Below are positions 12,634 through 20,498 of a DNA stretch of 64,000 bases, piece after piece. Origin of the DNA: Ignavibacteriota bacterium (GTDB lineage Bacteria; Bacteroidota; Ignavibacteria; Ignavibacteriales; Melioribacteraceae); the NCBI GenBank assembly GCA_002698995.1, contig PAAX01000026.1:248001-312000 (forward strand). The letters run 5' to 3'. The notes beneath the pieces are model-generated. The model was not told the origin of the DNA and ran no database searches. It saw only the letters and a program-made list of their open reading frames with translations. Position 1 is the first letter of the stretch, and the number at the start of each line of letters is the position of its first letter. The position numbers and the translations under genes are program-made.

Positions 12634-12804
12634 ATGAAAAGAAAAATTATAATTACTGAAGAAAGAAAATTCGGATTAAACAAAGAAGAAAATCTGCTGA
12701 ACAAAGAGAAAATCACCTTAAGCAATAATGAATTTAACTCAAGCAATGAGAAAAAGAATTTGAACAATAGCAAATTGCAATCAAACAATAACGGATTTGA
12801 GTAA
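12634..12804 (+). CDS. Possible 56-residue heptad-repeat ORF at start of 21-nt array
   Basis: An ATG at 12634 opens a frame of 56 codons that reads through the first six units of the 21-nt array and stops at TAA in unit 7. The product is Asn-, Glu- and Lys-rich with a heptad pattern (for example LNKEENL, LSNNEFN). No family is recognised. It could be a remnant of a longer coiled-coil gene, or chance, because any 21-nt array keeps one frame. Expression is unproven. Confidence 0.2.
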   Translation: MKRKIIITEERKFGLNKEENLLNKEKITLSNNEFNSSNEKKNLNNSKLQSNNNGFE

Positions 12805-12979
12805 AGCAATAACAAATCTGACTGAAACAATGTCAAAACTCACTGTCAAAATGTCAAAACTGAATAAAACAATGCAGAATCTGGATTAAACAATGAGGAA
12901 TTTGAATTGAACAATGATAGATTGGAATCGAGCAATGAGAAAATTGAATTGAGCAATGAGGAATTTGAATTGAACAATA
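12676..12979. repeat. Fifteen exact-length 21-nt degenerate tandem repeats
   Basis: Units of exactly 21 nt run from 12676 to the first palindrome, the fifteenth being cut at 12980. The approximate consensus is TTGAACAATGAGGAATTTGA. Not one indel occurs: each unit in the plus frame reads L-N/S-N-x-x-x-x. Units 7, 8 and 10 begin with TAA, TGA and TAA instead of a Leu/Ser codon, so the frame is broken three times. Divergence between units is considerable, so the array is old. It fills most of the only gene-poor stretch above 300 bases (12588-13107). Confidence 0.85.
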
Positions 12980-13007
12980 GTAGGGACAACTCATGAGTTG
13001 TCCCTAC
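12980..13007. repeat. REP-like perfect palindrome, copy 1
   Basis: This 28-nt perfect palindrome has arms GTAGGGACAACTCA and its reverse complement. It starts with the GTAG foot characteristic of REP elements mobilised by RAYT transposases. It abuts the 21-nt array and lies about 100 nt before the RAYT gene. Confidence 0.9.
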
Positions 13008-13107
13008 AAAGATAAATTCCCACCAAAAATTAAAAGGAATATTTGATAGTATTTATTATTAAAACTGATTAAATTATTACCATACAATTCTTCATATAAA
13101 ATTGATA

Positions 13108-13617
13108 ATGCACAATAGAAAACGGAACAGATTAAATGAATTCGATTACAGGCAGGGTTTTTGGTATTTTGTAACCATCTGCGTTAAAGGAATGCAACCA
13201 TATTTCGGTAGAATTGAAAAAGCAAAACTGATTTTGAATGAGTATGGAAAAATTGTGGAGGAACGATGGAAAGCGTTAAGTGAAAAATATGAATCCGTAT
13301 ATTTAGATAAGTTTGTTGTGATGTCGAATCATTTCCACGGAATTATTACATTTGACAACAACGTAGGGACAACTCATGAGTTGTCCCTACAAACGTCAGA
13401 AAAAATCAAGTCCCTATCACACTATATCGGCGAATTTAAAATGCAGTCTTCAAAGCAAATCCACCAAAATGGACTTACACAATTCAAATGGCAGCGTTCT
13501 TTTTATGACCGGATAATTAGAAATGAAAAAGAACTTCATCGGATTAGGGAATACATAGAGGAAAATCCACTAAGGTGGGAGATTGGAAAAGGGTTTGTTG
13601 ATAATTTGGAGCTATGA
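13108..13617 (+). CDS. REP-associated tyrosine transposase (RAYT, Y1 family)
   Basis: RAYTs are single-domain HUH nucleases that cut single-stranded REP hairpins. The 169-residue product has the HUH motif NHFHGI (74-79) and the later family blocks FKWQRSFYDRIIRNE and RIREYIEENPLRW that hold the candidate catalytic tyrosine (Y133 or Y149). The start is taken as the ATG at 13108 rather than the TTG at 13102. Identical palindromes lie before (12980), inside (13363) and after (13688) the gene. The internal copy encodes VGTTHELSLQ (86-95) between the HUH motif and the tyrosine without breaking the frame. RAYTs are normally domesticated single-copy genes. Confidence 0.92.
   Translation: MHNRKRNRLNEFDYRQGFWYFVTICVKGMQPYFGRIEKAKLILNEYGKIVEERWKALSEKYESVYLDKFVVMSNHFHGIITFDNNVGTTHELSLQTSEKIKSLSHYIGEFKMQSSKQIHQNGLTQFKWQRSFYDRIIRNEKELHRIREYIEENPLRWEIGKGFVDNLEL
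13363..13390. repeat. REP-like perfect palindrome, copy 2, inside the RAYT gene
   Basis: Identical in all 28 bases to the copies at 12980 and 13688. It is read in frame as VGTTHELSL within the transposase, so its transcript can form a 14-bp hairpin within the mRNA. Confidence 0.92.
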
Positions 13618-13687: not shown

Positions 13688-13715
13688 GTAGGGACAACTC
13701 ATGAGTTGTCCCTAC
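13688..13715. repeat. REP-like perfect palindrome, copy 3
   Basis: The third identical 28-nt palindrome, 70 nt after the RAYT stop. Together with copy 1 it brackets the transposase gene. The following 127 nt up to the HNH gene show nothing else recognisable. Confidence 0.9.
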
Positions 13716-13842: not shown

Positions 13843-14577
13843 ATGAAATCTTTTTTAATTAATCCAAAGTTTAAAATTGATGATATAATTTCATATACCG
13901 AGTTAACTGCAGCAGAAGGAATGAATCTTCAAAAAGGAATGAATTTCTTAGTTAAGCCTGATTATTCTGTTTTTCTAATGTCAATTAGAAAAGGGGCTCC
14001 TTATGCAGATCGAATTGACAAAAATTCCAATACTTTAATATATGAAGGGCATGATGTTCCTAGAAATCTCTCGAATTCTCCAAAAGAAGTTGATCAGGAA
14101 TTAACAACTCCAAATGGAACGTTGACTGAAAATGGGAAATTTTTTACTGCTGCAAAGTCATATCAGACTAAATTGATAAAACATCCTCACCGTATTAAAG
14201 TTTATGAAAAAATTCAAAATGGAGTTTGGTGTTATAAAGGATTTTATAATTTATTAGACGCTAAAATTGAGGATGTTGGTAAAAGAAAAGTATTTAAGTT
14301 TTATTTGCAACCGGTTGAAATCAAATCTTTACAAAAAGATATAATAATTCCTTTCAATAGAATAATTCCCACTGAAGTCAAAGTTGAAGTTTGGGCAAGA
14401 GATAAAGGTCAGTGTATAAAATGTGGCTCTAAAGAAAATCTGCATTATGATCATGATCTTCCATTTTCCAAAGGAGGGACAAGCTTAACCGCACAAAATG
14501 TTAGAATTCTTTGCATGAAATGCAATATATCTAAATCAAATAAGATTCTTACAATTCCACCATTCCTATTTCCTTAA
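13843..14577 (+). CDS. HNH endonuclease with SRA-like N-terminal domain
   Basis: The C-terminal 60 residues are a zinc-bound HNH nuclease: C191-x2-C194, the D203-H204-D205 core in LHYDHDLPFSKGG, N219, and C224-x2-C227. The first 160 residues recall SRA/YDG 5-methylcytosine readers: GAPYADR, LIYEGHD (65-71), a conserved Q-x-L..NG..L stretch at 85-95, HRIKVYEKI, WCYKGFYNLLDA and a closing VFKFYLQPV. SRA-HNH proteins act as modification-dependent (type IV-like) restriction enzymes, so defence against modified phage DNA is the likely role. It stands alone beside the RAYT/REP region, as expected of an accessory gene. The SRA assignment is by pattern and weaker than the HNH one. Confidence 0.8.
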   Translation: MKSFLINPKFKIDDIISYTELTAAEGMNLQKGMNFLVKPDYSVFLMSIRKGAPYADRIDKNSNTLIYEGHDVPRNLSNSPKEVDQELTTPNGTLTENGKFFTAAKSYQTKLIKHPHRIKVYEKIQNGVWCYKGFYNLLDAKIEDVGKRKVFKFYLQPVEIKSLQKDIIIPFNRIIPTEVKVEVWARDKGQCIKCGSKENLHYDHDLPFSKGGTSLTAQNVRILCMKCNISKSNKILTIPPFLFP

Positions 14578-20462: not shown

Positions 20463-20498
20463 AATAGTAGGGGTCGAAAATTTTCGACCCCTACTATT
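20463..20498. repeat. REP-like 36-nt perfect palindrome between convergent genes
   Basis: Arms of 18 nt around GTAGGGGTCGAAAA and its complement, with the GTAG foot on both strands. It lies between the stops of the TerB-like gene and the large ligase and may also act as a bidirectional terminator. Sequence differs from the 13-kb palindromes. Confidence 0.8.

What the first reader, a model, noticed from the sequence alone, without database searches (positions are those of the whole stretch)
13363..13390. A REP palindrome inside the coding sequence of its own transposase
The internal copy is read in frame as VGTTHELSL between the HUH motif and the catalytic tyrosine region. The mRNA can fold a 14-bp hairpin here and the DNA could be a target of the encoded enzyme, giving possible self-regulation. 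I recall similar GTTHELSL inserts in annotated Bacteroidota transposases, which would make this recurrent.
Basis: partly seen in the sequence, partly recalled or inferred. Interest (0 to 1): 0.72.

Follow-up and report, generated by a model that had tools for sequence, protein, structure and literature searches.

The report
REP palindrome inside its own transposase
A small bacterial transposase gene carries, read straight through in its protein, a copy of the hairpin DNA that this kind of enzyme acts on; this arrangement was already known for the family, but comparison suggests that the DNA, not the encoded peptide, is what is kept.

Summary
A perfect 28-bp palindrome (13363-13390) lies in frame in a RAYT/TnpA_REP gene (13108-13617), with identical copies 100 bp before and 70 bp after the gene. 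The general phenomenon is in print: Quentin et al. 2018 describe double-foot REPs in frame between HuH and Y in TnpA_REP subclass 2.4. This is a new member of a known kind.

What the comparison adds:
- 96 of 136 related RAYTs have a palindrome in this one loop.
- Footed ones are read in two frames; the third would give a TAG stop.
- Internal palindromes match flanking REPs in 26 of 48 testable loci (permuted mean 1.4).
- Among 28 gene pairs chosen for sharing a palindrome, it is the best-conserved stretch in 27; in six genomes it is the only copy found.
- Palindrome sequence covaries with residues 1-12 and 103-132, near the DNA-binding region of E. coli TnpA_REP.

Best reading: the enzyme's own substrate hairpin, tolerated in a flexible loop and kept at the DNA level. 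Autoregulation is untested; selection on an mRNA hairpin found no support. In-frame REPs in four secreted-protein ORFs of the same genome show that selfish insertion into tolerant loops also happens.

The parts
13108..13617 (+). RAYT / TnpA_REP-like HUH-Y1 transposase gene, 169 aa from ATG 13108
   Evidence: Pfam Y1_Tnp 27.6 bits; NCBIfam REP_Tyr_transpos 64.7 bits, below its cutoff of 80; 4ER8 best by profile and by fold
13363..13390 (.). Internal double-foot REP palindrome, read in frame as VGTTHELSL(Q)
12980..13007 (.). Left flanking REP, identical 28-mer, 100 bp before the likely start codon
13688..13715 (.). Right flanking REP, identical 28-mer, 70 bp after the stop codon
13330..13338 (+). 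HUH motif codons H76-F77-H78
   Evidence: alignment to 4ER8
13354..13413 (+). Low-confidence loop (residues 84-103) between a strand (76-83) and a helix (104-121) that holds the insert
   Evidence: AlphaFold2 model, mean pLDDT 87, block means 70 (81-90) and 61 (91-100)
13411..13500 (+). Residues 103-132: identity in this stretch covaries with palindrome sequence; predicted specificity determinant
   Evidence: partial Mantel tests
13105..13140 (+). Residues 1-12 (numbering from 13105): second stretch that covaries with the palindrome
13552..13554 (+). Catalytic tyrosine Y150 (YIEENP)
   Evidence: alignment to 4ER8; Y motif from Quentin 2018

Best explanation
The gene is a REP-associated tyrosine transposase of the kind Quentin et al. 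call TnpA_REP subclass 2.4 (Bertels RAYT group 4). The insert is a double-foot REP of the family that this enzyme processes, sitting in a flexible surface loop that tolerates it in the two reading frames that avoid a TAG stop. It is kept mainly as DNA: the single-stranded palindrome is the enzyme's own substrate or binding hairpin, so the gene always travels with a copy of its substrate from which REP families can be seeded. Shown by computation: location, frame, recurrence, match to locus REPs, conservation beyond codon needs in some clades, covariation with two protein segments. Inferred: that this enzyme binds and cuts this hairpin, and that the linked copy is useful to the gene.
For: Loop palindromes: 108 in 5,581 aa of loop (codon shuffles 0.6), against 15 in 19,886 aa of the rest of the domain (shuffles 6.6). 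Footed REPs: 3.46 per kb in the loop, 0.89 and 1.33 per kb in the first 50 bp of flank, 0.02-0.08 per kb beyond 300 bp. Two phases, 37 and 21 of 58, none in the stop phase; at least 11 phase changes on a weakly supported tree of 56. Internal and flanking REPs match in 26 of 48 loci. The share of pairs with palindrome identity of 85% or more rises with protein identity outside the loop: 3 of 3 at 0.7 or above, 44% of 61 at 0.6-0.7, 1.3% of 1,203 at 0.4-0.45. In 27 of 28 pairs that share a palindrome it is the best-conserved 27-nt stretch of the gene; in 8 RAYTs chosen for one shared palindrome, 8 of 8 full codons are identical in all 28 pairs. The internal copy is the only one found within 2 mismatches in 3 of those 8 genomes and in the genomes of L023, L028 and L044. 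Residues 103-132 (four overlapping blocks) and 1-12 covary with the internal palindrome beyond all 300 permutations and, for most of these blocks, with flanking ones; in E. coli TnpA_REP the DNA-binding helix alpha3 and the region around beta4 contact the REP (passages). Family genomes with a RAYT match (29; E up to 1e-20) have a median of 9 GTAG elements, those without (28) 1.5; p = 4e-5.
Against: 40 of 136 RAYTs have no loop palindrome at the threshold used, and some have short loops with no trace, so it is not essential. Perfect palindromes are about as common in loops (43 of 58) as in flanks (35 of 53), which fits recent insertion as well as selection. The 28 pairs and the 8 genes were picked because their palindromes agree, and most pairs come from one clade, so they are neither unbiased nor independent; over all 95 pairs the median palindrome identity is 0.79 against 0.61 for the gene, helped by the shared GTAG feet, and several close pairs have different palindromes. 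The segment 103-132 lies just after the loop, so linkage could add to its covariation, and the flanking REPs are often near-copies of the internal ones; block 115-126 does not covary with flanking REPs (p 0.15) while 49-60 and 127-138 do (p 0.03, 0.04). All 11 genomes are titled MAG; completeness was given only for G035. I saw no binding or cleavage data for any member of this subclass.
Confidence: 0.55

Rival explanations
1. Neutral self-infection. RAYT activity scatters REPs near its own gene, and the only place in the gene where one survives is this dispensable loop. The insert has no function; conservation reflects recent or repeated re-insertion.
For: REP density falls steeply with distance from the gene. 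Insertions in two frames, two or three per loop in some genes, and at least 11 phase changes on a weak tree. The loop is low-confidence coil, and Quentin 2018 judged that it may have little impact on the enzyme. The same genome has in-frame REPs at one loop site in four secreted-protein ORFs.
Against: The loop is about three times denser than the nearest flanking DNA although it is coding. Near-perfect conservation occurs in genomes where no other copy was found to act as donor.
Confidence: 0.3
2. Autoregulation. The enzyme binds the hairpin in its own gene (as single-stranded DNA) or in its mRNA and limits its own expression.
For: The RNA hairpin is stable (z = -6.2). The palindrome is plausibly the enzyme's substrate. 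The internal copy is the only one found in six genomes.
Against: No strand asymmetry of wobble pairs (29 against 25, or 33 against 33). No fixed frame or sequence. 40 of 136 relatives lack it. Nothing here tests regulation.
Confidence: 0.1
3. Selection on the encoded peptide: VGTTHELSLQ-like peptides do a job in the enzyme.
For: Within clades the peptide is conserved, for example VETPDRASL and RGGSRTAPT.
Against: The same palindrome is read in two frames as unrelated peptides (VETLHATSLQ in L162 and SRDVACNVST in L152 from one 28-mer). Synonymous sites are conserved too in the clade tested.
Confidence: 0.05

Closest known systems
TnpA_REP subclass 2.4 of Quentin et al. 2018 (PMC6006769), corresponding to Bertels RAYT group 4
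   Same: HuH NHFH, WQ, double-foot GTAG...CTAC REPs flanking the gene, REP in frame between HuH and Y, variable extension between the HuH strand and the next helix
   Different: Y motif here is YIEENP against consensus YIxNNP; their profiles could not be run. The two-frame reading, single-copy conservation and covariation are not stated in the passages I read
E. coli TnpA_REP (4ER8) and the REPs it cuts
   Same: Fold, catalytic motifs, GTAG-tagged hairpins
   Different: E. coli REPs have a bulge; Quentin 2018 calls in-gene REPs unique to subclass 2.4, and E. coli TnpA_REP is in their subclass 2.2
Rickettsia palindromic elements (RPEs) and other intragenic REPs (Di Nocera 2013, PMC3733652)
   Same: Short palindromes inserted in frame in protein genes
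   Different: [quoted passage not shown] here the tag is GTAG and the host gene is the REP-associated transposase

Membership tests
TnpA_REP subclass 2.4 / RAYT group 4 | HuH motif NH[IFV]H | tested here: met
   NHFH at 13327-13338; table
TnpA_REP subclass 2.4 / RAYT group 4 | W-Q motif before the Y helix | tested here: met
   W129 Q130, nearly invariant in an alignment of 45; table
TnpA_REP subclass 2.4 / RAYT group 4 | Y motif YIxNNP | tested here: inconclusive
   YIEENP: one consensus position differs
TnpA_REP subclass 2.4 / RAYT group 4 | Flanking double-foot REPs GT[AG]G...C[TC]AC | tested here: met
   12980-13007 and 13688-13715
TnpA_REP subclass 2.4 / RAYT group 4 | REP inserted in frame between HuH and Y, in the extension after the HuH strand | tested here: met
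   13363-13390; loop between strand 76-83 and helix 104-121
TnpA_REP subclass 2.4 / RAYT group 4 | Assignment by the authors' own HMM or tree | not testable with these tools
   Their profiles were not among the libraries used
NCBIfam NF047646 REP_Tyr_transpos (equivalog) | Score at or above the curated cutoff of 80 bits | tested here: not met
   64.7 bits, E 7.9e-18; so not filed in that equivalog
IS200-like Y1 transposase (Pfam PF01797) | Score at or above the gathering cutoff of 23 | tested here: met
   27.6 bits
Active REP transposase | Binds and cuts its REP as single-stranded DNA | not testable with these tools
   Needs a bench assay
Rickettsia palindromic element | CGTC end tag | tested here: not met
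   Ends are GTAG and CTAC; tag definition

The most novel reading that the evidence does not exclude
RAYTs of this group are self-labelled enzymes: each gene keeps, under selection on DNA, one copy of its own substrate hairpin inside the reading frame. The internal palindrome then gives the enzyme's specificity directly, with residues 1-12 and 103-132 as the reading surface, and lets the gene seed a new REP family after horizontal transfer (1 copy in some genomes, 124 in another with the same palindrome).
Probability: 0.4. Interest if true: 0.72.

Novelty: new member of a known kind. Interest (0 to 1): 0.5.

Why it matters
How RAYTs recognise their REPs has been worked out experimentally for few enzymes (passages of PMC8266576), and where REP families come from is open. 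If the in-gene palindrome is the enzyme's cognate hairpin, many enzyme-substrate pairs can be read off sequence alone and a recognition code can be tested. The loop is also a clear natural case of mobile DNA becoming protein sequence again and again at one site, in more than one frame.

Tried and rejected
Peptide-level selection: rejected as the main cause, because the same palindrome is read in two frames. mRNA-hairpin selection: wobble pairs show no strand bias, so not supported. Gene conversion from genomic REP copies as the sole cause of conservation: unlikely where no other copy was found. Position of mismatches within the stem was set aside because the detection rule favours intact inner pairs. 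The idea that L152 is a chimera joined at the palindrome (N-terminal half nearest L134 at 0.76, C-terminal half 0.48) is kept only as a lead. Nearest neighbours by N-half and by C-half: in 4 cases only the former, in 14 only the latter, shared the palindrome (p 0.03, rows not independent). A viral-contig scan confirmed no relative. On print: searches; among the four papers of which I read passages, only PMC6006769 reports REPs inside the transposase genes. That is no proof of absence elsewhere, since most subscription papers are not held. Seen of each paper: PMC6006769, section 13 and found passages; PMC3733652, abstract, section 16 and found passages; PMC8266576 and PMC2817692, found passages; all others, listings only. 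The name Bertels group 4 comes from PMC6006769; the Bertels paper was not seen.

Rows dropped: of 155 ORFs matched by the family model in 151 loci, 136 were kept after leaving out those under 140 aa and duplicates. In one search, 8 of 80 loci were skipped by the motif filter; loci of that set all had a match. could test 48 of the 91 RAYTs with an internal palindrome of arm 10 or more. One search used 56 of the 57 RAYTs with a footed loop REP, and its tree is weak (28 of 53 inner branches open). One search used 86 of 91. could read 11 of the 23 module hits. One search stopped with an error after its first results; one search went on with the rest. One search also stopped with an error and was repeated.

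Full report
What is there. The 28-bp palindrome GTAGGGACAACTCATGAGTTGTCCCTAC occurs three times in the window, all perfect: 12980-13007, 13363-13390 and 13688-13715. The middle copy is in frame in a 169-aa transposase (ATG 13108 to stop 13617) as VGTTHELSL(Q). The genome has 14 copies at up to 3 mismatches (12 exact; reversed control 0) and 39 GTAGRG...CYCTAC elements of this general form (control 1). The protein is a Y1_Tnp whose nearest solved structure is the E. coli REP transposase 4ER8. In the predicted structure the insert lies in a low-confidence loop between the strand after HUH and the next helix.

It is recurrent. Of the other RAYT-like matches in the same genome, the two complete close ones carry other palindromes at the same place; one match is cut by a contig end (L005) and one is a distant RAYT without an internal palindrome (L006). 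With 80 loci from public genomes and those of 57 genomes of the same family I aligned 136 distinct RAYTs. 96 of 136 have a palindrome (arms of 9 or more) in this loop: 108 palindromes in 5,581 aa of loop (codon shuffles 0.6), against 15 in 19,886 aa of the rest of the domain (shuffles 6.6). 58 loop elements in 57 RAYTs have both feet (GTRG...CYAC): 37 in one frame, 21 in another, none in the frame that would read TAG; shuffled loops give 0.05.

It belongs to the local REP family. Among 91 RAYTs with an internal palindrome of arm 10 or more, 48 also have a flanking palindrome within 1.5 kb; 26 of the 48 match at 85% or more, against a permuted mean of 1.4 and maximum of 6 in 1000. Footed REPs number 3.46 per kb in the loop, 0.89 and 1.33 per kb in the first 50 bp up- and downstream, and 0.02-0.08 per kb beyond 300 bp. 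Family genomes with a RAYT match at E up to 1e-20 (29) have a median of 9 GTAG elements; those without (28) have 1.5; p = 4e-5, or 7e-5 without the own genome.

DNA rather than peptide. The same palindrome is read in different frames in different RAYTs, for example GTAGAGACGTTGCATGCAACGTCTCTAC in L152 and L162. Of the 56 rows in the tree, L112 has the highest identity to the window's protein (54% over 113 columns) and carries the window's palindrome with one change in another frame; that gene also has a stop. Among 28 pairs picked for sharing a palindrome at 96% or more in the same frame, it is the best-conserved 27-nt stretch of the gene in 27 (median nucleotide identity elsewhere 0.63). Over all 95 pairs of that call (protein identity 0.5 or more, same frame and length) the medians are 0.79 for the palindrome and 0.61 for the gene. 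In 8 RAYTs picked for one shared palindrome, from records named as several phyla, 8 of 8 full codons are identical in all 28 pairs, while codon identity at conserved residues elsewhere is 0.30-0.68 (single-pair p 7e-5 to 0.05). Copies per genome in this set (up to 2 mismatches) are 2, 1, 4, 1, 1, 2, 124 and 2. For L023, L028 and L044 the internal copy is the only one found; the genome of L023 appears to be the same as G035. There 8 of 9 codons (L023 against L028 or L044; p 0.03) and 9 of 9 (L028 against L044, close relatives; p 0.23) are identical. These six single-copy genomes speak against upkeep by conversion from other REPs, with the caveats that the genes were chosen for their palindromes and that the assemblies are MAGs.

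Which part of the protein goes with the palindrome. Identity in residues 1-12 and in all four overlapping blocks of 103-132 correlates with palindrome identity after allowing for whole-protein identity, beyond all 300 permutations; the block just before 1-12 also does; 7-18, 49-66 and 127-138 pass only the 95th percentile; blocks around HUH and the catalytic tyrosine do not. With flanking palindromes of 42 RAYTs the same segments stand out: 1-12 p 0.02, 103-120 none of 500, 121-132 p 0.008, but 115-126 p 0.15; residues 49-60 (p 0.03) and 127-138 (p 0.04) also pass. In E. coli TnpA_REP, K82 in the DNA-binding helix alpha3 and residues around beta4 contact the REP (passages). Caveats: the segment abuts the loop, and the flanking REPs are often near-copies of the internal ones.

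Against a special function. 40 of 136 lack the palindrome. Perfection is similar in loops (43 of 58) and flanks (35 of 53). Wobble pairs show no strand bias (29 against 25; 33 against 33 with all 108). In this genome REPs also sit in frame in other genes: three secreted-protein ORFs read VGTTHELSLQ and a fourth reads VGTSRDLSLQ at the same module site, that is 4 of the 11 modules I could read out of 23 hits. Type IX sorting tails were found in L013, L019 and L173, and not in L018, which is cut by the contig end. So tolerated selfish insertion is real and may be the whole story.

Known or new. Quentin et al. 2018 (PMC6006769; section 13 and passages) report REPs inside subclass 2.4 tnpA_REP genes, in frame and generally between HuH and Y, call this a unique feature of the subclass, and think it may have little impact. 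Di Nocera et al. 2013 (PMC3733652) list intragenic GTAG REPs; their section on transposases does not mention this case. The window's gene is therefore a new member of a known kind. The two-frame reading, the single-copy conservation and the covariation are additions that I did not see in the passages read.

Noticed in passing
L013, L018, L019, L173 (own genome): The window's REP (VGTTHELSLQ; one of the three copies has one change) and a sister REP (VGTSRDLSLQ) lie in frame at one homologous site (FEIxR...WE) in four secreted-protein ORFs; type IX sorting tails were found in three of them (L013, L019, L173).
   Followed up: partly
L184 1498-1526: Another GTAG palindrome lies in frame inside a type IX sorting domain (TIPTKVGDANFASPTNVTLR).
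   Followed up: no
window 12763-12978: Imperfect 21-bp tandem repeats end directly at the left REP.
   Followed up: no
window 13843-14577: Gene after the right REP encodes an HNH endonuclease domain with a weak SRA-like match below the Pfam cutoff, perhaps a restriction enzyme for modified DNA.
   Followed up: no
window 20467-20494: Another perfect double-foot palindrome, GTAGGGGTCGAAAATTTTCGACCCCTAC.
   Followed up: no
L152 against L134 and L062: L152 resembles L134 in the N-terminal half (0.76) but not in the C-terminal half (0.48), and its palindrome matches L062: possible recombination at the palindrome.
   Followed up: partly
L061 genome (G063): 124 copies of GTAGGGGCGGTTCGCGAACCGCCCCTAC at up to 2 mismatches, against 1-4 in seven other genomes with the same in-gene palindrome.
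   Followed up: no
L006: A more distant RAYT without an internal palindrome is flanked by GCACAGACTGAGAGTCTGTGC-type repeats.
   Followed up: no
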